A DNA stretch of 35,277 nt from an uncultured Bacteroidota bacterium (GTDB lineage: Bacteria; Bacteroidota; Bacteroidia; Bacteroidales; P3), in the NCBI GenBank assembly GCA_902784865.1, contig CACZWL010000022.1:1-35277 (forward strand), given 5' to 3'. This document shows positions 138-34,728 of this stretch, piece by piece. Below the pieces are notes generated by a model. That model was not told where the DNA came from, did no database searches, and saw only the letters and a list, made by a program, of their open reading frames with translations. A program made the position numbers and the translations under genes. Numbering within the stretch: position 1 is the stretch's first letter; each line of letters starts with the position of its first letter.

Positions 138-874
138 TTACTTCACCTCTTCGTAGTCGACGTCGGTGACGTTGTCATTGGGGTTGCTTCCCTGCTGGCC
201 GGCACCTGCGTTGGGGTTGCCGCCCATGTTGTTGGGGTCGAATCCGGCACCGGGGTTTGCTCCATTACCAGTCGCAGACTGCTGGGCTTTGTACATGTCT
301 TCGCTGGCGGCCTGCCAGGCGGCGTTGATCTTGGCCAAGGCGGCGTCGATCTGCTGGACGTTCGCTCCACTATGGTCGCGGGCCGAAGCAGCGGCGGCGT
401 GGGCGGCCTTCAGCTCGGTGAGGGCGGCTTCGATGGCGCTCTTCTTCTCGGCGGGGATCTTGTCGCCGTAGTCCTTGAGGTTCTTCTCGCTCTAGAATAT
501 GAAGAAATGCCAGTGGCATTTCGATAGCGAAGCGGAGAACAAACAGCCGTCGGCGTTGCTCACTTCATTTTCTTTCTTTAATCGGTGTTGTCTCATCAAG
601 CCCGGCAGGCAAACCACGCAGCCATAGCAGTTGATTTTCTCTGCCTCTTCCTTGGCCTTCTTGTCCTGGTCGGCGTGGGCCTCGGCTTTCATGCGCTTGA
701 TTTCGTCCTCGCTCAGGCCGCTGCTGGCCTCGATGCGGATAACACCGCTGAATGAATCAAATGAAGTGAGCAACTCTTCGACCTTCTTCTGCACGGCGGG
801 GATACAGCTGGAGCCGCCGACGAGGATGACCTCATTCGCTCATCAAGTTCGCGGGGTACACCAGATGTCGCTGT
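138..874 (-). pseudogene. Decayed, mosaic 3' part of a second dnaK allele
   Basis: The minus strand encodes a DnaK C-terminus ([18 protein letters not shown], ending [11 protein letters not shown]) closely matching the intact dnaK at 4965-6902. Going upstream, the reading frame meets a TAG at about 492-494, where the intact gene has a CAG glutamine codon (FQSEK). Farther upstream only short dnaK blocks survive: about 547-559, 630-740, 772-832 and 864-874. They are separated by foreign stretches of about 30-70 bp. About 430 bp present in the intact gene (5428-5854) are missing between two blocks. The remnant is not a recent copy: its C-terminal lid has a longer alanine-rich insertion (AAAASARDHSGANVQQ where the intact gene has SARNVQQ) and a different Gly/Asn tail. 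It is probably the residue of a displaced or second dnaK, with no functional product. Confidence 0.85.
555..774. repeat. 16-bp exact inverted repeat inside the dnaK remnant
   Basis: GTTGCTCACTTCATTT at 555-570 is the exact reverse complement of AAATGAAGTGAGCAAC at 759-774. Both sit in or at the edge of sequence foreign to dnaK. Similarity extends beyond the arms: AACACCG lies about 10-15 bases from each arm in the matching orientation. A third foreign piece (833-863) shares CTCATCAAG with the 560-630 piece. The inserts therefore look like fragments of one repeat family. Confidence 0.7.
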
Positions 875-8008: not shown

Positions 8009-8072
8009 AGGCCACACAAGGTATCCGACAGGTATCTCCTAGGACTGTTCTATAACTGTTCCTTAACTGTTC
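8009..8072 (-). repeat. 11-nt-period array upstream of the barrel gene (site B)
   Basis: On the plus strand TGTTC occurs at 8046, 8057 and 8068, and AGG at 8009, 8019, 8030 and 8041. The spacing is 11, 11 for TGTTC and 10, 11, 11 for AGG, with 5 nt from the last AGG to the first TGTTC. In the sense of the barrel gene this is three GAACA units followed by four CCT units. It starts about 100 nt before the start codon. Confidence 0.75.
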
Positions 8073-8184
8073 TTTAACCTGAAACTTGGCCGGGAGTGTC
8101 GTTGGTGCGCCGTAAAGATAACGCATTCCGGCGGATTTTGTTACATAAAAGATGTTAAAATTTTCACTGCTCTGAAAAAAAGCG

Positions 8185-12274: not shown

Positions 12275-14758
12275 ATGACGATAGAGGATTTAGCGCGTGA
12301 GCGCGAATACGAGACTGGCATCGAGACCTGCCCGGGTTGCGACAACCACTGCACGGTGAAGACATTCCGCTTCGCCAACGGCCGCACATTCCACTCGGGC
12401 AACCAATGCGAACGCATCTACTCGTCCGCTGCCGAAAGCGTGGCGAAGGGGGTGAATATGTTTGCTGAAAAGAACCGGCTGCTATGGCAGCGGTCCATGA
12501 AACCCGCCGCAGGCGGCACCCTCCGCATAGGCATACCACGGGCACTGGGCATCTACGAGGACTTCCCCTTCTGGTGCACCCTGCTGGTGGAAAGCGGCAT
12601 GGAGGTGGTGCTCTCGCATGGTTCCACCAACCGCCTCTACGAGCAGGGCATCCGCACCGTGGTGGCCGACAACATCTGCTTCCCCGCCAAGCTGATGCAC
12701 GGCCATGTGATGGACCTCATCGGGCGCGGCGTCGACCGCTTACTCTACCCCTGGGTGGTCTTCGAAAAGAAAGAAGACACGCACTCCGGCAACTCGTTCA
12801 ACTGCCCGGTGGTGAGTGGCTATGCCGACGTGATACGCTCGTCGATAGACCCCGAGGGCCGGCATGGAATAGCCTTCGACGCCCCGGTGGCGAGTTTCGC
12901 CGACCGGCGGATGCTCGAGCGGTCGTGCGTCGAATACCTGGGCCGACTTGGCGTAGGCAAGCGCACCGCGCTGGCAGCGGTAGAAAAAGCCTTGGCCGCG
13001 CAAGAGGACTACCTGGCCACCCTCGAACGCCGGGGCACCGAGGTGCTGCAACAGGCCATGGCCGACGGCCGCATGGCGATACTGCTGGCGGCTCGCCCCT
13101 ACCACATCGACCCGCTGATCGAGCACAAGGTGTCGCAAGCTATAGCCGACATGGGCATCGACGTCATCACCAAGAACGTGGCCTCCACCGAAGGCAGCGA
13201 CGTCTACCGCCACATCAACGCCCTCAGCCAGTGGGCCTACCCCAACCGCATCTTCAAGGCCGCCTGGTTCGCCGGGCAGCACCCCTACCCTGGCCTCCAC
13301 ATGGTGGAGCTCACCTCCTTCGGCTGCGGACCCGACGCCTTCATCCTCGACGAGGTGCGTTCCATACTCGACCGCTTCGGCAAGAACCTCACCGTGCTGA
13401 AAATCGACGACGTGAACAACATCGGCTCGCTCAAGCTGCGCCTGCGATCGCTGGTGGAATCGGTAGGGAATCAGAGTATTCAGAATACTCAGAATACTCG
13501 GAATACTCCGAATACTCCGAACTTTCAGAACAGTTTCACCACCAAGACCTACACCGCCGAGGACCGGCGGCGCACCATCCTGGCCCCCTACTTCGCCGAG
13601 GGCTACTCCGAGTACCTGCCGACGCTGTTCTCGCTGGCGGGCTACCGCATGGTGTGCCTGCCCATGGGCAACCTCGACGACGCCGAGCAGGGGCTGCGCG
13701 AAGCCAACAACGACATCTGCTACCCCGCCACCATCGTGGTGGGCAGCCTGATGCGCGCCCTGCGCTCGGGCCAATACGACCTGAAGAATACCGCCGTCGG
13801 TATTACCCAGACTGGCGGACAGTGCCGCGCCAGCAACTACTACTCACTCATCAAGAACGCCATGGTGCGGGGCGGCTTCGCCGACGTGCCCGTCATATCT
13901 GTCGCCCTGTCCGACGGGCTGACCGACACCCAGCCGGGCTTCTCTCTGCCGTGGGGCAAGCTGTGGCGCATCACGCTGTACACCATCCTCTATGCCGACG
14001 CGCTGCAGAAGCTGTACTACCCCGCCGCAGTGCGCGAAAAGAAGGCCGGCACAGCGCGCCACCTCTACGACCACTACACCGCCGCGGCGCAGCCGCTGAT
14101 AGCCACCCGCAACTGCAAAGGCCTGCTGCGCCTGCTGGGCGAAGCGGCCGGCAACTTCAGCGCCGCCATCAACCCTGCCAAGGAGGCTCCGCGCGTGGGT
14201 CTGGTGGGCGAGATATACGTCAAATACAACTCATTCTCGAACAAGAACGTGGTATCGTGGCTGATAGAGCGCGGCGTCGAGGTGGTGCCGCCGGCGCTGG
14301 GCGCCTTCTTCCTCTCGGCGCTGCCTGCCATGCAGGGCGACAACGACCTGCACATACGGCGCCCGCAGATACCCGCCGGGCTGGCCAAAGGGGCCAACAG
14401 ACTGGCCATGGCGGTGATGCACCGCATGGACCGCATCTGCGAAGGGTTCCCCTTCTACCGCCCCTTCACAGACGTATACGACCTCTACCGCCTCTCGCAC
14501 CAGGTAATCAGCCCCGCCGCCAACTTCGGCGAGGGGTGGCTGCTGCCGGGCGAGATATGCCACCTGGCCGAGAGCGGCATCGACAAGGTGGTCAGCGTGC
14601 AACCCTTCGGATGCATAGCCAACCACATCATATCCAAGGGCATCGAGAAACGCCTCAAGGACCGCTACCCCGACCTCTCGCTGCTCTTCCTCGACTTCGA
14701 CGCCGGCACATCGGAAGCCAACGTACAGAACCGACTCCACTTCATGCTTAACCACTGA
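12275..14758 (+). CDS. 2-hydroxyacyl-CoA dehydratase-like protein (DUF2229 / CoA-activase C-terminal part)
   Basis: The 827-residue protein starts with a cysteine motif, CPGCDNHC (about 19-26). A DUF2229 region follows at about 75-390 (IGIPRALGIYEDFPFWCTLL, VADNICFPAKLMHGHV, HSGNSFNCPVVSGYADVI). The second half is HgdB/HgdC-like (TILAPYFAEGYSEYLPTLFS, NNDICYPATIVVGSL, CRASNYYSLIKNAM) and ends with a typical GCIANHIISKGIEK segment. With the upstream gene it makes up the complete long activase found in anaerobes, and presumably they form a complex. Residues 400-419 are a low-complexity linker made by a 9-nt repeat. The stop is followed 3 nt later by the TetR gene. Confidence 0.85.
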   Translation: MTIEDLAREREYETGIETCPGCDNHCTVKTFRFANGRTFHSGNQCERIYSSAAESVAKGVNMFAEKNRLLWQRSMKPAAGGTLRIGIPRALGIYEDFPFWCTLLVESGMEVVLSHGSTNRLYEQGIRTVVADNICFPAKLMHGHVMDLIGRGVDRLLYPWVVFEKKEDTHSGNSFNCPVVSGYADVIRSSIDPEGRHGIAFDAPVASFADRRMLERSCVEYLGRLGVGKRTALAAVEKALAAQEDYLATLERRGTEVLQQAMADGRMAILLAARPYHIDPLIEHKVSQAIADMGIDVITKNVASTEGSDVYRHINALSQWAYPNRIFKAAWFAGQHPYPGLHMVELTSFGCGPDAFILDEVRSILDRFGKNLTVLKIDDVNNIGSLKLRLRSLVESVGNQSIQNTQNTRNTPNTPNFQNSFTTKTYTAEDRRRTILAPYFAEGYSEYLPTLFSLAGYRMVCLPMGNLDDAEQGLREANNDICYPATIVVGSLMRALRSGQYDLKNTAVGITQTGGQCRASNYYSLIKNAMVRGGFADVPVISVALSDGLTDTQPGFSLPWGKLWRITLYTILYADALQKLYYPAAVREKKAGTARHLYDHYTAAAQPLIATRNCKGLLRLLGEAAGNFSAAINPAKEAPRVGLVGEIYVKYNSFSNKNVVSWLIERGVEVVPPALGAFFLSALPAMQGDNDLHIRRPQIPAGLAKGANRLAMAVMHRMDRICEGFPFYRPFTDVYDLYRLSHQVISPAANFGEGWLLPGEICHLAESGIDKVVSVQPFGCIANHIISKGIEKRLKDRYPDLSLLFLDFDAGTSEANVQNRLHFMLNH
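13472..13525 (+). repeat. In-frame 9-nt minisatellite coding an xNT repeat
   Basis: Six 9-nt units run in codon register: CAGAGTATT, CAGAATACT (twice), CGGAATACT, CCGAATACT and CCGAACTTT. They encode a Q/R/P-N-T type linker. Each copy change would add or remove three residues without a frameshift. Confidence 0.85.
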
Positions 14759-17069: not shown

Positions 17070-17082
17070 GCTAGAAAAATTG

Positions 17083-17156
17083 TCGGGGTGAAAAGACTCG
17101 AACTTTCGACCCCTTGCACCCCATGCAAGTGCGCTAGCCAACTGCGCCACACCCCG
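17083..17156 (-). tRNA. tRNA-Pro (anticodon GGG)
   Basis: A 74-nt cloverleaf folds on the minus strand. The acceptor is CGGGGTG/CACCCCG, and the D-stem is GCGC/GCGC. The anticodon stem CTTGC/GCAAG holds loop ATGGGGT (T33, anticodon GGG, G37). The T-arm is GAAAG/CTTTT with loop TTCGAGT. The C1-G72 pair and G37 are hallmarks of bacterial proline tRNAs. CCA is not encoded. It has its own promoter (17204-17234) and terminator. Confidence 0.95.
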
Positions 17157-17251: not shown

Positions 17252-18757
17252 TTACAATTCATTGTTTATCAGAACTGTTAGACGCGATACACCGGAGGCC
17301 GCAGTACATCCATCCTGGCCTGCGCAGAGGTTGCGGATGGTGATTTTGACCGTTGGCGGAAGCAGCGGATAGAGGTAACCCTCGAGCGACTGTATGCGGT
17401 GGTCGGTGAGGAGGCTGTTGAAAGCGCGGTCGGTGGTGAGGTCGTTGGCGAGGGTCATGTCGATGACGGTCTCGGGGTTGTCGTTGAGGAAACGGACGAG
17501 TGGGGCGAGCGTCTCGATGCCGCGCTGGCTGAGCTCGACGTCGACATTGGGGCCGAAGAGGTCGTCGTAGACAAGGCGCTCGCCGATGGGGAGGCGGTCG
17601 AGGCGGACGTCGAGACGCGCCTCGGCGATGAGGTACTCGTCGCTGTGCTTGGTGGAGTTGAAGGTTTCGAAGGCGACGAAGTAGTTGTCAAGCTGGTAGG
17701 AGAAGTCGTAGAACTGGTCGGTCTGGAGGTACATGTGGTAGTGACCCTCGCTGTCGGAGAAGGTGTTGCAGACGACGGTGTTGCTTTGGCGGGCGGAGAC
17801 CTTGACGCCTGACAGGGCGCGGCCCTGCTTGTCGGCGACGACGCCCCAGAGGTGGATGCCGTCGAGGGTGCCAGCGAAGGAGAAGAGCTGCGAGTCAGAC
17901 TCGCTGGTTTTGCGGGTGGAGAGCCAGTAGCCGAAGCCTGCGGCGGTGTCGATGGCGATGTCGTAGTCGTCGGCAGCGTCGACATTGATGGGTGCGGGCA
18001 GGCGCTGGATGCGGCAGCGGCCGATCTGGAGCATGCCGACGGTGTCGCCGACGACGCGGTCGGAGATGAGGCGCGTGGAGTAGAGGCTCATGCGGCCGAG
18101 GTCCTCCTTGTGGCCGTTGGAGGAGAAGAGGAGGCAGTCGCGGTAGACGACGGGTGCGCGCTCGTCGGACGTGGTGTTGATACGGCTGCCCAGGTTCTCG
18201 GGCTTGCCCCATCGCTTGCCGTCGAAGAGCGAGTACCAGAGGTCGTAGCCGCCCAGGCTGCGGCGCTTCTCGAGCGAGGAGAAGATCATGATGTTGCCAT
18301 CGATAGAGAAGGTCGGGTGCTCGACGGTCATGCCTTTGTTGAAGAGCGAGCCTCCGCTGAGGGTCACCGACTCGACCTTGCCCGATCCGCCGGCGGGGAT
18401 GCGGTAGAGGAAGGAGCGGCCTTTGCGGTCTCGCTTGGTGAAGTAGAGGTCGCCCGTCTGCGGGTGGCGGACAACATAGTCCACATCCTCGTCGAAGCGC
18501 ACCATGACGGTGTCGGCCAGGAAGCCGACGACCTGCTCGCCGGTGCGCTGCGCCTGGAGGAGCAGGCCTGCGGTGTAGCAGTAGAGGTTGCCGTCGAGCA
18601 TGGAGAGGCTTTTCACGTGCCCGGGGAGGACGGTGAGCTGCTGGCGCGAGGAGACGAAGGCCGACTCTTGCGCAGCCAGAAAGCCGTGGAGCGGGCACTG
18701 TGCGAGGACGAGGAGGCTTGCGCAGAGGAGGCGCTGCCAATGGCGCTTATCTAGCAT
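17252..18757 (-). CDS. PorE-like envelope protein: PD40 propeller, carboxypeptidase-regulatory-like and degenerate OmpA-like domains
   Basis: I start at ATG 18757 ([18 protein letters not shown]...), which gives 501 residues and a signal peptide (about 1-30). An upstream extension would be Arg-rich and implausible. The first half has PD40/WD40-like repeats (GGYDLWYSLFDGKRWGKPEN then LGSRINTTSDERAP, LLFSSNGHKEDLG). A carboxypeptidase-regulatory-like beta sandwich follows (LWGVVADKQGRALSGVKV, SDSEGHYHMYL). The C-terminus (LAPLVRFLNDNPETVIDMTL, then HRIQSLEGYLYP) resembles an OmpA peptidoglycan-binding domain with weakened signature. This order is known from PorE-type proteins of type IX secretion, anchored between outer membrane and peptidoglycan. 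It overlaps the lon stop by 7 bp (ATGCTAG), so it is co-transcribed with lon. Confidence 0.65.
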   Translation of the reverse strand: MLDKRHWQRLLCASLLVLAQCPLHGFLAAQESAFVSSRQQLTVLPGHVKSLSMLDGNLYCYTAGLLLQAQRTGEQVVGFLADTVMVRFDEDVDYVVRHPQTGDLYFTKRDRKGRSFLYRIPAGGSGKVESVTLSGGSLFNKGMTVEHPTFSIDGNIMIFSSLEKRRSLGGYDLWYSLFDGKRWGKPENLGSRINTTSDERAPVVYRDCLLFSSNGHKEDLGRMSLYSTRLISDRVVGDTVGMLQIGRCRIQRLPAPINVDAADDYDIAIDTAAGFGYWLSTRKTSESDSQLFSFAGTLDGIHLWGVVADKQGRALSGVKVSARQSNTVVCNTFSDSEGHYHMYLQTDQFYDFSYQLDNYFVAFETFNSTKHSDEYLIAEARLDVRLDRLPIGERLVYDDLFGPNVDVELSQRGIETLAPLVRFLNDNPETVIDMTLANDLTTDRAFNSLLTDHRIQSLEGYLYPLLPPTVKITIRNLCAGQDGCTAASGVSRLTVLINNEL

Positions 18758-21225
18758 TTTCTTTTCCTTTCTTTTTTTTCGGTTACCAGAGCCAGCGGCA
18801 GGGCCTCGCTCACCTCGCCGATGTAGTGGAAGGAGAGGTCGCTGAGGTAGGCTGGCTCTATTTCTTCTATGTCGCGACGGTTGTCGTGGCATAGGATGAT
18901 GTCGGTGATGCCGGCGCGCTTGGCGGCGAGGACCTTCTCCTTGATGCCGCCGACGGGCGTGACGTCGCCGCGGAGGGTGATCTCGCCAGTCATGGCCACG
19001 GCGGGGTTGACCTTGCTGTGCGAGAAGGCCGAGACCATGGCGACGAACATGGTGATGCCTGCCGAGGGGCCGTCCTTGGGGGTGGCGCCTTCGGGGACAT
19101 GGACATGGATGTTGCTCGACTCGAGCTGCTTGCTGTCGATGCCGAAGCGTGCGGCGTTAGACTTGAGGTACTCGAAGGCCAGGGTGGCTGACTCTTTCAT
19201 GACGTCGCCAAGGTTGCCGGTCATGGTGATGGTGCCTTTGCCCTTGCTGAGCGAGGCTTCGATGAAGAGTATCTCGCCGCCGACGGGCGTCCAGGCGAGG
19301 CCCGTGACGACACCTTCGCGGGGCTGCTTCTGGCGGCGCTCGCTGTTGTGGATGGGCAAGCCGAGGACCGCCTTCAGCTCGTCGGCGCTGACGGCTGCGC
19401 GGCTCTTGGCGCCTGTCTCGGCAAGGACGACACGGTGGCGCACAACCTTCGAGAGTTGCTTCTCGAGCTGGCGGACGCCGGCCTCGCGGGTATAGTCGTT
19501 GATGACGCAGCGCAGTATGTCGTCGGAGAACTTCAGGGTGCGGCGGTCGACCACATTGTCGGCCATGACGCGTGGCAGGATGTGCCGTTTGGCGATCTCC
19601 AGCTTCTCTTCGATGACGTAGCCGCTGAAGTCGATGACCTCCATGCGGTCGAGCAGCGCGGGGTGTATCTCGGCGAGGCTGTTGGCCGTGGCGATGAAGA
19701 AGACGCGCGAGAGGTCGTAGTCGAGGTTGACGTAGTTGTCGTGGAAATGGCAGTTCTGCTCGGGGTCGAGGACTTCGAGGAGCGCCGAGGAGGGGTCGCC
19801 GTGGAAGGAGGCATGCTGCACCTTGTCGATCTCGTCGAGGACGAAGACGGGGTTGGAGGTGCCTGCCTTGACGATTTCCTGCATGATGCGGCCGGGCATG
19901 GCGCCGACGTAGGTGCGGCGGTGGCCGCGGATTTCGGCCTCGTCGTGGAGGCCGCCGAGGGCCACACGTCGGTAGGGGCGGCCGAGGGCTTCGGCCACCG
20001 AGCGGCAGACGGAGGTCTTGCCGGTGCCCGGAGGGCCTACGAGGCAGAGCACCTGGGCCTTGGTGCGGGTGCCCTTCTGGGTCTGGCGCTTGCGGACGGC
20101 GAGGTACTCTATGATGCGGTCCTTGACCTTGGCGATGCCGAAGTGGTCGCGGTCCATCAGCTCGCGGGCGCGTTGGATGTCGTAGGTCTCACTCTCGGGG
20201 GCCATCCACGGTATGTCGAGGAGGGTCTCGAGGTAGGTGAGCTGGACGGAATAGTCGGACGACATGGGCTGAATGCGGGCCAGCTTGTCGAGCTCCTTGC
20301 CGAAGGTCTGCTCCACGTGCTCGGGCCACTGCTTGTCGGCGGCGCGGGCGCGGAGCTCGGCCAGGTCGTTGTCGGCCATGGGGTCCTTGGGTGCGCCGCC
20401 GAGTTCTTCCTGGATGACGTTCATCTGCTGGCGGAGGTAGTACTCGCGCTGCTGGCGCTCAAGCTCTTCGCGCGTCTTGTTGTCGATGGCCCGGCGCAGC
20501 TCGTCGAGGCCCTTGAGGGTGGAGAGGTGCTCGAGCATGAGCTCGACACGGCCCACGTAGTTGTCGCAGGCGAGGAGGTCGTACTTCTTGTCGGCCTCGA
20601 TGTCGAGGTGCGTAGCGGCGAAGTTGACGAATATCTTGTCGGAACCGATGCCGGTGAGCATGGAGGCTATCTCGTCGTCGCCCATGCGCGAGCGCATGAC
20701 TTCGGCATATTGCGTGCGGAGGAGCTTGATTTTGCGGCGGAAGGTCTTGGTGTCCATGCCCGCTGCCGACTCGTTGGCGATGGCGACGGTGCCGCGGAGG
20801 TAAGGCTCTTCGGAGGTAATCCAGAGGGAGTGGCAACGCGAGACGCCCTGCATGATGGCAACGGTGATATCGTCCTTGAAGTTGAAGACTTTGAGGACTT
20901 TGGCCACCACGCCGACGGGGTAGAGGTCGGCCAGCAGGGGCTCTTCGGCGTCGGTGCGCTGCGAGAAGACGGCGACGTGCTTCTGCGTGCCGCCGACGTC
21001 GGCCAGGAGGCGGCGCGACTTGGGCCGCTGGGCGGCGATGGGAATGAGGACTCCGGGGAAGAGGACCTGGTCCATGACGGGCAGCACGGCCATCTCGGGC
21101 TCGATGCTGTCGTCGGAAAGCAGGAGGTCTTCGTCGACGGTGTCGATGACGGGCACTATGTTGGCGCGGACGTTGATGTCCTTCGATATGATGTTGGCTA
21201 GGTCGTCGAGGGTCATTTTCTTCAT
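18751..21225 (-). CDS. lon: ATP-dependent protease Lon
   Basis: The 824-residue protein is a complete LonA. The N-terminal substrate-binding domain is at about 40-250. The AAA+ module has Walker A GPPGTGKT (397-404) and Walker B VFVLDEID. The protease domain has catalytic Ser721 in [11 protein letters not shown] and Lys764 in [10 protein letters not shown]. It degrades misfolded and regulatory proteins in the cytosol. The lysine/arginine-rich tail ends [11 protein letters not shown] 21225 ([11 protein letters not shown]) is preceded by an 11-nt repeat array running to within 6 nt of it. ATG 21216 is an alternative start. The promoter at 21357-21387 lies just behind the murF/alr stop, so lon is transcribed separately, with a leader of roughly 125 nt. 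Confidence 0.97.
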
Positions 21226-21231
21226 GATGGC

Positions 21232-21307
21232 AGGTGGATACTAGGTATTTTCCAGGTGTTTCGCAGGTGAGTTGTAGGTCTGTTCTTCGTCTGTTCTTCG
21301 GTTGTTC
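21232..21307 (-). repeat. 11-nt-period array in the lon leader (site D)
   Basis: On the plus strand AGG occurs at 21232, 21243, 21254, 21265 and 21276, and TGTTC at 21281, 21292 and 21303. All spacings are exactly 11 nt, with 5 nt between the blocks. In mRNA sense the order is three GAACA units, five CCT units, then the start codon. The array lies downstream of the lon promoter, so it is transcribed. Confidence 0.85.
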
Positions 21308-21356
21308 TTCGGCTTTCCCTTCCCGATGGCGGTCATCCGCGAAGGCTGGAAATTTG

Positions 21357-21387
21357 CAAAGATACGTATTTTTTCCGAGGTAGCAAA
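21357..21387 (-). promoter_or_regulatory. Promoter of lon
   Basis: On the minus strand TTTG (21387-21384) and TATCTTTG (21364-21357) are separated by exactly 19 bp. Transcription would start near 21350, giving a leader of about 125 nt that contains the 11-nt array. Confidence 0.85.
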
Positions 21388-21408
21388 ATTTATTTTCCTA
21401 AAAGTTGT

Positions 21409-26322: not shown

Positions 26323-26886
26323 TTAGCAAGCCACTACCACCTTGGCGTAGCGCAGCACTTTGTCGTTGAGGTAGTAGCCTTTTTCCACGACGTCGATGAC
26401 GAGGCCTTTCTGGCTCTCTTCGGGAGCGGGGACCTGGGTGACGGCCTCGTGGAGGTTTTCGTCGAACTTCTCGCCCTTGACTTCCATGGCCTTGAGGCCT
26501 TTCTGCTCAAGGATTTTCATCATCTTGTTGTAGATGAGGAGTATGCCTTCTTCGTTGCCGAGGGCGGCGAGGGCGCGGTCGAAGTCGTCGACCACGGGCA
26601 GGATGGCCTTCATGAGGTCGCGGCTGCCGTTGAGCAGGAGGTCGGCCTTCTCGAGGCTGGTACGCTTACGGTAGTTCTCATATTCGGAATAGAGGCGGAG
26701 GTACTTGTCGTTGAGCTCGGCAAGTTTCTCGCCCATCTCCTGCACCTTGTCGGTCTCAGGGCAGTCTGCGGTGGCAGTGTCGGTGGCAGTCTGTTCGGTG
26801 TCCACCACCGGCTCTTCGGCGGCGGGGGTCTCGGTGGTCTGTTTTTCTTTGTCGGTCATATCTGTTTTTCTCTTTTTTATTTTCAT
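26323..26886 (-). CDS. grpE: Nucleotide exchange factor GrpE
   Basis: The 187-residue protein has an acidic, disordered N-terminus, a long coiled coil ([20 protein letters not shown] then [18 protein letters not shown]) and the C-terminal beta domain ([39 protein letters not shown]). It releases ADP from DnaK. ATG 26886 is used here. MTDKEKQ at 26859 is a reasonable alternative because the first nine residues are mostly Lys/Arg. It is the first gene of grpE-dnaJ-DUF2851-murF/alr, with an 11-nt repeat array and TGNCA palindromes upstream. Confidence 0.96.
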
Positions 26887-26938
26887 TGTCAGTATATTAA
26901 GCTTACAAATGTCTTTTTGCGGACCCTTGGCGACCCGT

Positions 26939-26984
26939 AGGCATCTGGTAGGTGTCAGGTAGGTATCTGGTAGGTATATTGTTC
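26939..26984 (-). repeat. 11-nt-period array in the grpE leader (site E)
   Basis: On the plus strand AGG occurs at 26939, 26950, 26961 and 26972, exactly 11 nt apart. The 11-mer ACCTACCAGAT (mRNA sense) is almost perfectly repeated. A single TGTTC lies at 26980, here 8 nt rather than 5 nt from the AGG block. The array ends about 50 nt before the grpE start. Confidence 0.8.
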
Positions 26985-27066
26985 GACTCTGGAGCGATTT
27001 GGATCGATTTGAACAACATGTACCTTTTCCGGGGTGCGCGGGGACGCTTTTTACAATTAGGTATAA

Positions 27067-27108
27067 TACAAAAAGACTGCCATTGGCAGTCGGACTGACA
27101 TTTTGTCA
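27067..27108 (-). promoter_or_regulatory. Putative grpE control region: sigma-54-like core and TGNCA palindromes
   Basis: On the minus strand 27082-27067 reads TGGCAGTCTTTTTGTA, compatible with TGGCAnn-N4-TTGYW and resembling the dnaK element. Overlapping it is GACTGCC-N3-GGCAGTC (27075-27091). Just upstream is the perfect palindrome TGACA-N3-TGTCA (27096-27108), which also contains the OstA-like stop codon. No TAnnTTTG promoter is convincing here. Confidence 0.4.
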
Positions 27109-33052: not shown

Positions 33053-33080
33053 AATTGAAAATTGAAAATTGAAAATTGAA
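33053..33080 (+). repeat. Heptamer array (AATTGAA x4) at the M23 start
   Basis: Four exact AATTGAA units occupy 28 bp right after the LemA-like stop codon. The last unit contains the TTG (33076) that appears to start the M23 gene. Confidence 0.85.
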
Positions 33081-34728
33081 ATTCCGACCCTCCATACTGT
33101 TCATTGCTAGCATATTAAGCTATACCCATGCGGTGGCGCAGGAGTTGCCGCAGGGCTATTTCCGCGTGCCGATGGAGGGGGAGATGGCCCTCTCGGCCAC
33201 CTTCGGCGAACTGCGCATGAACCACTTCCACGGCGGCATCGACATGCGCACCGGCGGCGTCACCGGCAAACCGGTCTACGCTGCCGCCGACGGCTACGTG
33301 GCACGCGTCAGCGTCTCGCCCTGGGGCGGAGGCAAAATACTGTATATCAAGCACCCCAACGGATACACGAGCGTCTACATGCACCTCGACGGCTTCTGCG
33401 GCGAGATAGCAAAACGGGTGCTCGAAGAGCAGTACAGCCAGCAGTCGTACAGCATCTCGAAAGAGTTCCCCGCCGGACTGCTGAAGGTGAAGAAAGGGCA
33501 GCAGGTGGCCGTGAGCGGCAACACCGGCGGCAGCGGCGGACCCCACCTGCACTTCGAACTGCGGCGCGCCACCGCCAGCGACCAGCACACGGGCGCCCGC
33601 ACCTTCAACCCCCTGCACGCAGGCCTCCCCTACCGCGACGGCATCAAACCCACGCTGCGCGGCATACGAATCTATCCCGTTGGCGGACAACCTTTTGCAC
33701 TCGGCAAGGAGAACACCGCCAGCGTCGGCAGCCCCTTCTACCTCGGCATCTATGCCACCGACGCCGCCGAGGGGTCGACGGCCAAGAACGGCGTGGACCG
33801 CATCGAGGTGAGCGTCGACGGCACCCTGGCTTTCGCCTACACCACTGAGGCTTACGGACTGGACTCGACACGCGTGGTGAACGCCCTGATCGACTACCGC
33901 CACTACCGCCGCACCGGCGAGGCCTACCTGCTGACGCGCGCACTGCCCGGCGCCGAGGGCGAATGGATTGCCGTGCGACAGGGCGACGGCATCTTCCGCT
34001 TCGCCGCAGGCACCGAACACCGCATCGAGGTGCGCGCCTACGACGTGGCTGACAACTGCACAAAACGCTCATTCACCGTGCGTTGCACCGGCACCTCCAC
34101 CCCACCCCGAGCGGCCACCGAAATCGACTACACAAGACCCTACCGCCTTGAACGTCAGACCTTCAGCATCGACATGCCCCCCCACTGCCTCTATGCCGAC
34201 GAGCGGCTGCAGACAACCGTCGAGGCCGACACCGCCTACCGATCGGCCGTGCTGACGGTGGAACCCACGCTGAACGACATACCGCCCCACCGCAGCTTCA
34301 CCCTCTCGCTGCGCTCGCGCGGCAACCGCGACGCCGAACGGCTCGTGCTGGTACGCCTCGACGGCAAACGCACAAGCGCCTACCCCACCCGCCACGAAGG
34401 AGCCTGGCACAGCGCCGAGGTGCGCGACTTCGGACGCTTCGCACTGCTGGCCGACACCGAGGCTCCCAAGATCCGCCCACTCAACTTCACCGACGGCGGC
34501 AAGCTGAAAACCAACACCCTACGCATCAAAATCAGCGACAACCTGAGCGGCATCGAGACCTACAACTGCTACCTCAACGGACAGTGGATCCTGGCCGAAT
34601 ACGACGGCAAGAGCGCCACGCTCACCATCGCCGCCGGCAAACTCCGCGCCGGGCAGAACCGGCTGCGCGTCGAAGTGGTCGACGGCGTGGGGAACAGCAC
34701 GGACGTCACGTTTTTGATTAGGAATTAG
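33076..34728 (+). CDS. M23 (LytM/gly-gly) metallopeptidase, secreted
   Basis: The 550-residue protein starts at TTG 33076, because only this start keeps the signal peptide (MKFRPSILFIASILSYTHAVAQ). The next in-frame ATG lies past it. The M23 domain (about 36-175) has zinc ligands in NHFHGGIDMR (His52, Asp56) and GGPHLHFE (His157-x-His159). M23 enzymes cut peptidoglycan cross-bridges or act as activators of amidases. About 350 residues of beta-rich sequence follow (FTDGGKLKTNTLRIKISDNL, LRVEVVDGVGNSTDVTFL), likely Ig-like modules. The start codon lies inside a heptamer repeat, which may have overwritten an original ATG. Confidence 0.9.
   Translation: MKFRPSILFIASILSYTHAVAQELPQGYFRVPMEGEMALSATFGELRMNHFHGGIDMRTGGVTGKPVYAAADGYVARVSVSPWGGGKILYIKHPNGYTSVYMHLDGFCGEIAKRVLEEQYSQQSYSISKEFPAGLLKVKKGQQVAVSGNTGGSGGPHLHFELRRATASDQHTGARTFNPLHAGLPYRDGIKPTLRGIRIYPVGGQPFALGKENTASVGSPFYLGIYATDAAEGSTAKNGVDRIEVSVDGTLAFAYTTEAYGLDSTRVVNALIDYRHYRRTGEAYLLTRALPGAEGEWIAVRQGDGIFRFAAGTEHRIEVRAYDVADNCTKRSFTVRCTGTSTPPRAATEIDYTRPYRLERQTFSIDMPPHCLYADERLQTTVEADTAYRSAVLTVEPTLNDIPPHRSFTLSLRSRGNRDAERLVLVRLDGKRTSAYPTRHEGAWHSAEVRDFGRFALLADTEAPKIRPLNFTDGGKLKTNTLRIKISDNLSGIETYNCYLNGQWILAEYDGKSATLTIAAGKLRAGQNRLRVEVVDGVGNSTDVTFLIRN

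What the first reader, a model, noticed from the sequence alone, without database searches (positions are those of the whole stretch)
21226..21310. Leader arrays with an exact 11-nt period shared by lon, grpE and a barrel gene
Before lon the coding strand reads three GAACA units then five CCT units, every step exactly 11 nt, ending 6 nt before the ATG. The same two-block design recurs at 8009-8072 (same 5-nt joint) and at 26939-26984 (four near-perfect ACCTACCAGAT units). All lie between a probable promoter and a gene, all on the same strand sense, so they are probably transcribed. A loose version precedes dnaK. Sequence drifts but period and CCT/GAACA anchors are kept, which argues for function rather than slippage. 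Possible roles: binding sites for an RNA-binding protein or ribosomal protein S1, a rut-like platform for Rho (regularly spaced YC dinucleotides), or phased DNA binding.
Basis: seen in the sequence. Interest (0 to 1): 0.82.

Follow-up and report, generated by a model that had tools for sequence, protein, structure and literature searches.

The report
Genome-wide 11-base intergenic repeat arrays
The repeat before the lon gene is one of well over a hundred short arrays, all built on an 11-base step, that sit between genes in this gut bacterium; its relatives have such arrays too, with differently spelled units but the same step, which points to evenly spaced binding sites along DNA rather than a switch for stress genes.

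Summary
The arrays before lon, the 7120-7908 gene and grpE are real and step by 11 nt (0 of 2000 shuffles reach any of them). The 'loose version' before dnaK is not above chance. A fourth array, behind tRNA-Pro, was missed.

The interpretation changes. They are 4 copies of a genome-wide class: one core pattern has 128 matches in the genome, reversed control 0, and strict period-11 arrays were intergenic in 106 of 106 cases over four samples. They occur after stop codons and tRNAs, before promoters and in leaders, so they are not a leader code for protein-quality-control genes. Relatives keep the step with other units, some as long palindromes.

Direct arrays point along transcription in G000, G001 and G023 (tandem gaps 21:4 and 20:5), not in G011 (8:5). 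A few are old: lon in 3 species, ruvX-def in 3. The rut idea fails in G023 and G011. No binding protein was found. Period-7 arrays are about as common in the named relatives.

Best reading (0.42): phased protein-binding arrays on DNA, spread as dispersed repeats and kept at transcription-unit borders.

The parts
21226..21312 (-). lon leader array (family III): three GAACA units (21280-21312), then five CCT units (21226-21279), one 11-nt grid ending at the ATG
   Evidence: orthologous array before lon in G001 (= L109) and L110
21357..21388 (-). lon promoter by consensus (minus-strand TATCTTTG at 21357-21364; TTTTG at 21384-21388)
   Evidence: sequence; the Bacteroidetes promoter consensus is recalled
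8009..8078 (-). family III array upstream of the 7120-7908 gene (TTAAAGAACAG-type units, then CCT units)
26933..26987 (-). family I element: GTCGAACAATAT followed by ACCTACCAGAT-type 11-nt units, between the 27106-28611 gene and grpE
   Evidence: member of the family counted
27069..27091 (-). intrinsic terminator of the upstream gene (hairpin plus T-run), before the grpE element
   Evidence: sequence
18751..21225 (-). lon
26323..26886 (-). grpE
17082..17156 (-). tRNA-Pro(ggg)

Best explanation
The arrays are rows of protein-binding sites set about one helical turn (11 bp) apart on one face of the DNA. They spread through the genome as parts of dispersed intergenic repeats and were kept at borders of transcription units. 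Shown: 11-nt step; one grid across both blocks in most copies; intergenic; many copies; species-specific units; direct and inverted forms; bias along transcription in three of four genomes tested; a few old orthologous copies (lon, ruvX-def). Inferred: that a protein reads the rows, that it acts on DNA rather than RNA, and that the row in the lon leader affects expression. The likeliest action is a polar roadblock or insulator against read-through transcription.
For: In gaps, period 11 gives 20, 23, 31 and 31 arrays (G000, G023, G011, 80 named loci) against 0-3 at periods 10, 12 and 13, and 0 in five Markov shuffles of each set. Units differ between species and families yet keep 11: at the lon gap alone, 5 of 30 genomes have a period-11 array, in four unlike sequences. 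G011's palindromes are divergent in 7 of 11 gaps, convergent in 0, and in 9 of the 10 gene sides (of 18) where a strong promoter motif was found it lay between palindrome and gene. Tandem-gap orientation: 21 to 4 (p 9e-4) for family III in G000, G001 and G023; 20 to 5 (p 4e-3) for families I, II and the G023 element. Proteins that read 11-bp direct repeats are known: CarH and R1 ParR.
Against: No binding protein was found. Period-7 arrays are about as frequent in the 80 named loci (48, 35 of them intergenic) and in G011 (34, 19 intergenic), so repeat growth in general is active here. G011's direct GAACA arrays show no orientation bias (8 to 5). Families I, II and the G023 element are copies of longer repeats, so part of the sameness is descent by copying. 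Family III often lies in probably transcribed DNA: TAnnTTTG 40-180 nt upstream in 11 of 29 (G000+G001), 1 of 29 antisense, about 9% at random places. Promoters lying gene-side of a mid-gap palindrome is also what chance placement would give. Elements do not clearly stand in for intrinsic terminators (13 of 47 gaps with a sense element have one, 85 of 242 without).
Confidence: 0.42

Rival explanations
1. Selfish or neutral dispersed repeats: MITE/REP-like copies and short-repeat growth tolerated only between genes, with the 11-nt step inherited from founders and palindromes perfected by hairpin-templated repair.
For: Intergenic; placement in G000 follows gap length; copies of families I, II and the G023 element align beyond the array; period-7 arrays are common too; palindrome arms change together in 3 pairs, 9 cells, which repair could cause.
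Against: Unlike units share 11 and not 10, 12 or 13; family III copies share no obvious flanks; retention at lon and ruvX-def; orientation bias in G000, G001 and G023.
Confidence: 0.3
2. RNA element: the array in a transcript is bound by an RNA-binding protein (S1-like, RRM protein or other) and controls translation or RNA ends.
For: At lon and ruvX-def the array runs to the start codon; 9 of 41 family III matches start within 91 nt of a same-strand start codon; a TAnnTTTG box stands 111-113 nt upstream in 6 of 30 G000/G001 matches; sense bias.
Against: G011 palindromes mostly lie upstream of promoters; where a terminator and a sense element share a gap, the terminator comes first in 10 of 13; lon of G023 has no array.
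Confidence: 0.2
3. Rho utilisation (rut) platforms: C-rich, G-poor RNA with YC every 11 nt.
For: Downstream block C > G in G000 (0.33-0.35 vs 0.25-0.26, n 19) and G001 (0.39 vs 0.20 at +60, n 10); placement after tRNAs and stop codons.
Against: Reversed in G023 (C 0.24, G 0.39-0.41 at +90 to +150, n 8) and G011 (C 0.19-0.24, G 0.32-0.34 from +120 to +270, n 19); GAACA units hold few YC; other species' arrays form hairpins.
Confidence: 0.05

Closest known systems
Intergenic TAACTGA heptamer direct repeats (Beggiatoaceae, Cyanobacteria, some Bacteroidetes; PMC4679880; abstract and sections 7, 12 and 18 read)
   Same: Over a hundred short direct-repeat sets in one genome, mostly intergenic and oriented toward a gene; a post-transcriptional role was proposed
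   Different: Period 7 and one fixed heptamer, mostly at start codons; here period 11, units differ by species, two-block and inverted forms, placement not leader-specific
BrickBuilt MITE of Porphyromonas gingivalis (PMC4596501; abstract read)
   Same: Bacteroidales; intergenic multi-copy element containing a tandem repeat
   Different: 23-nt unit, 19 copies, inverted-repeat ends; family III here shows no conserved flanks
CarH operators (PMC9304148; passages read)
   Same: Tandem 11-bp direct repeats read by a MerR-type protein on one DNA face; ACA stands at a similar place in the unit (my alignment)
   Different: A few operators per genome with unit nnnnTnnACAn; ours lack that T
ParR/parC of plasmid R1 (PMC9426499; passages read)
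   Same: 11-bp repeats, at least two needed for binding
   Different: One plasmid locus; here dispersed on a chromosome
REP elements with RAYT transposases
   Same: Dispersed intergenic repeats, some palindromic
   Different: The RAYT-like genes read here mostly have other hairpins next to them

Membership tests
REP/RAYT | Y1 transposase gene flanked directly by the same repeats | tested here: not met
   Nine Y1 genes read by eye (G000 two, G023 two, G001, G011, G002, G021, G022); hairpin repeats of other sequence beside most. A scan of 20 fetched Y1 loci (about 3.3 kb each or less) finds a period-11 array in 4: G023 L206 about 1.2 kb away, G002 L211 about 340 nt away, L202 and L216 over 1.2 kb away
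MITE | Copies share defined ends or terminal inverted repeats | tested here: inconclusive
   Family III: no shared flanks seen. Families I, II and the G023 element: shared about 95-300 bp by eye. G011: palindromes of about 108 bp
MITE | Target-site duplication and empty sites | not tested
   Relatives looked too diverged for intergenic alignment; not attempted
Rho rut sites | C-rich, G-poor sense strand in every species with the array | tested here: not met
   Met in G000 and G001, reversed in G023 and G011
TAACTGA-type leader repeats | Most sets just upstream of start codons | tested here: not met
   9 of 41 family III matches
CarH-type operators | Unit nnnnTnnACAn | tested here: not met
   GAACA units have A where the T is (sequences; consensus)
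CarH-type operators | Cognate MerR-type protein | tested here: inconclusive
   0-3 MerR_1 matches in each of 37 genomes, no expansion in array-rich ones (G000 2, G001 2, G023 2, G011 1); 7 of 30 MerR loci hold a period-11 array, near my rough background estimate
Phased A-tract curvature | A-run of four or more every turn | tested here: not met
   Present in G011 unit TAAAAGAACAG, absent from G000 ACGAAGAACAG and G056 units
Phased protein-binding array | Bound protein with an 11-bp footprint | not testable with these tools
   Needs footprinting

The most novel reading that the evidence does not exclude
A genus-wide chromosomal system in which proteins coat rows of sites 11 bp apart at transcription-unit borders; the sequence dialect turns over between species, in direct and inverted forms, while the geometry stays fixed: a bacterial boundary code defined by spacing rather than by motif.
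Probability: 0.25. Interest if true: 0.85.

Novelty: new variant of a known kind. Interest (0 to 1): 0.6.

Why it matters
Short-repeat families in bacteria are usually defined by sequence. Here the sequence changes between species and the 11-base step does not, over well over a hundred loci in one genome. If a protein reads that step, it would be a boundary or roadblock system in common, mostly uncultured rumen and hindgut Bacteroidales, and the lon and def copies give concrete loci to test. If none does, the case shows how far dispersed repeats can hold a period without function.

Tried and rejected
Slippage alone: judged insufficient, because GAACA anchors are never 10 or 12 apart in the samples, the two blocks share one grid in most copies, and unlike units share the period. 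Leader code for protein-quality-control genes: rejected. dnaK version: not above shuffles. REP/RAYT. MerR: no sign of a link; the likeness of a G011 unit (CAAGTCGAACT) to HspR's HAIR half-site is recalled and was not followed. Rut. Terminator substitution: no clear difference. Rfam at gathering scores: only the tRNA in the window. A fixed small-RNA family behind family III: four G001 copies share a promoter stretch, the other eight aligned rows do not clearly join them. FopS sRNAs of Bacteroides (PMC11697453, passages read): a lead only.

Literature: searches showed no report of 11-bp intergenic arrays in Bacteroidales; two returned no paper, and of the longer lists I saw 30 of 125 (32), 10 of 12 (61) and 8 of 11 (78). 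The library lacks most subscription journals.

Limits: genes were called by a home-made ORF and codon scorer that misses some genes. The G000 sample includes the window, which was chosen for its arrays. The 80 named loci are not all independent (L133, L156 and L171 carry the same array). The loose two-anchor search behind the family III counts admits doubtful hits, such as C1:189725, which counts as 'same'. One search printed several lon loci on the wrong strand; redid all 30. One search looked for family I in 12 loci of G001 and found none; one search found one copy, with CCCTAGAGAAC units, in nine further stretches.

Full report
OBSERVATION. The lon, 8-kb and grpE arrays are in the sequence as described and far outside shuffles (0 of 2000 each). 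The lon array has three GAACA and five CCT units on one 11-nt grid that ends at the ATG. The dnaK version is not supported (220 of 500 shuffles). A fourth, shorter array lies about 90 nt behind tRNA-Pro (7 of 2000 shuffles). The 7120-7908 gene has no Pfam or NCBIfam match, so 'barrel' is unproven.

GENOME-WIDE CLASS. CTGTTCTTCGG twice (up to 3 mismatches) has 23 matches in the own genome, reversed control 0. The core GTCGAANNANNNACCTACCA (up to 1 mismatch) has 128, reversed control 0. In samples of 433 kb (G000, window included), 368 kb (G023) and 400 kb (G011), strict period-11 arrays number 21, 23 and 31, all counted as intergenic (less than half in called genes); in 80 named relative loci (1.55 Mb) 31, all intergenic, in 23 of 80 loci. 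Within gaps the counts are 20, 23, 31 and 31, against 0-3 at periods 10, 12 and 13; five shuffles of each set give 0. Period 11 is not the only repeat length: period 7 gives 21, 2 and 34 arrays in the three samples (7, 2 and 19 intergenic) and 48 (35 intergenic) in the 80 loci; periods 8, 14, 16 and 21-24 also occur there. What sets 11 apart is that all 106 lie between genes and that its neighbours are nearly empty.

FAMILIES. In G000: family III (GAACA units, then CCT units; no obvious shared flanks), family I (a short left part, GTCGAA, then ACCTACCAGAT units) and family II (a hairpin of TGTTAATAGATGTTAAAC type, GTCGAA, ACCT units, then a longer shared stretch before the next gene's promoter) (by eye). 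In G023 a related element with ACCTACAGGAT-type units has 19 copies in the sample, none in called genes. The core with two ACCTA units (up to 2 mismatches) has 138 matches in G000 and 116 in G023; of 99 genus genomes 11 have any, the other nine with 1-2. That pattern is tied to one dialect: G001 has at least one copy with CCCTAGAGAAC units. GAACAG triples (up to 1 mismatch) occur in 9 of 61 relatives, own genome included: G023 60, G011 47, G056 17, G001 12, G000 10, the other four 1-3; the reversed control also has stray hits (2 in G001, 3 in G028, 1 each in G008 and G018). In 295 genomes of the order 5 have one, more than two only in G000 and G056. G056, from another family, carries CTGTTCCCCTC arrays beside CCTCTCCCTAT blocks; 9 of 10 fetched places lie near contig ends.

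INVERTED FORMS. G011 has eleven near-perfect palindromes of about 108 bp with 11-nt arms in 400 kb, one of them shortened. Seven lie in divergent gaps and none in convergent ones; divergent gaps hold about 22% of G011 gap length. Among 18 gene sides a strong promoter motif was found in 10, and in 9 it lay between palindrome and gene; mid-gap placement alone would favour that. On ten full copies 95.8% of cells pair, 41 of 52 pairs never vary, 3 pairs show changes on both sides (9 cells), and breaks occur; shuffles reach the covariation score in 9 of 500 but the number of such pairs in 430 of 500. Hairpin-templated correction could give this without selection. Inverted 11-nt arrays occur in other relatives too.

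PLACEMENT. By gap type (tandem/divergent/convergent, expected from gap length in brackets): G000 13/3/3 (12.6/4.1/2.3), G023 9/4/5 (11.6/3.9/2.6), G011 13/11/6 (19.9/6.6/3.4), 80 loci 14/9/2 (17.0/5.2/2.8). In tandem gaps family III points with transcription 21 to 4 over G000, G001 and G023 (further: 6 divergent, 5 convergent, 5 edge, 2 inside called genes), p 9e-4; families I, II and the G023 element 20 to 5, p 4e-3. G011's GAACA arrays do not (8 to 5). Where the preceding gene is on the same strand, family I starts 34-126 nt after its stop (9 of 14 copies) and the G023 element 26-335 nt (13 of 19). A TAnnTTTG box stands 40-180 nt upstream of family III in 6 of 19 (G000) and 5 of 10 (G001), 0 and 1 antisense, about 9% at random places; 2 of 8 in G023 and 0 of 19 in G011. 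Four tRNA genes are followed by family III within about 50-95 nt: Pro in the window, Arg (L195), Gln (L226) and His (L228).

AGE. Of 30 lon loci of the genus, 5 have a period-11 array within 400 nt upstream: GAACA/CCT in G000 and G001, other units in G008, G006 and G011; 25 have none at this threshold, G023 among them. The array between ruvX and def is in G000, G001 and G023. One more G000 copy (C1:170752) shares its downstream neighbour with a G001 copy.

MECHANISM. Because unlike units share 11, and because part of the class probably lies in untranscribed DNA, phased binding to DNA is the most economical reading. Direct 11-bp rows are read by proteins in CarH operators and R1 parC. Copying of elements explains sameness within a species. 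The lon copy forms most of the 5' leader; an effect on lon expression is plausible and untested. The species is an unnamed Bacteroidales; named relatives are rumen, horse and other gut MAGs, including Candidatus Colimorpha.

RESULTS AGAINST. No protein; no MerR expansion; no clear terminator substitution (13 of 47 against 85 of 242); rut composition reversed in G023 and G011; G000 placement by gap type near random; no orientation bias in G011; period-7 arrays about as common in relatives; no array at lon in 25 of 30 loci.

Noticed in passing
G000 C5:112.6-113.6 kb and C5:127.7-128.4 kb (loci L024, L025): Two RAYT-like Y1 transposase genes with REP-type hairpins beside them (CCCCTACGGGGC, CCGTGGGC...GCCCACGG at the first).
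   Followed up: partly
window 492-794 (-): The ORF carries a stretch nearly identical to part of DnaK ([21 protein letters not shown]...), apparently a broken partial duplicate of dnaK; no Pfam match.
   Followed up: no
window 13471-13521: TCAGAATAC repeated 5.7 times inside the 12275-14758 gene.
   Followed up: no
window 33053-33081: Heptamer AATTGAA repeated 4.1 times; period-7 arrays are common in G000, G011 and the named relatives, in genes as well as gaps.
   Followed up: no
G000 family II, e.g. C1:136818, C5:52587: A repeat of roughly 250-300 bp with a hairpin, in one orientation upstream of unrelated genes; 7 of 9 sampled copies have their GTCGAA core 283-341 nt before a start codon.
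   Followed up: partly
L206 (G023) 180-303: An unusually long array of about ten ACCT-type 11-nt units, about 1.2 kb from a RAYT-like gene.
   Followed up: no
G056 contig ends (L179-L188): Composite 11-nt block elements near contig ends in 9 of 10 fetched places, suggesting longer unresolved repeats in that genome.
   Followed up: partly
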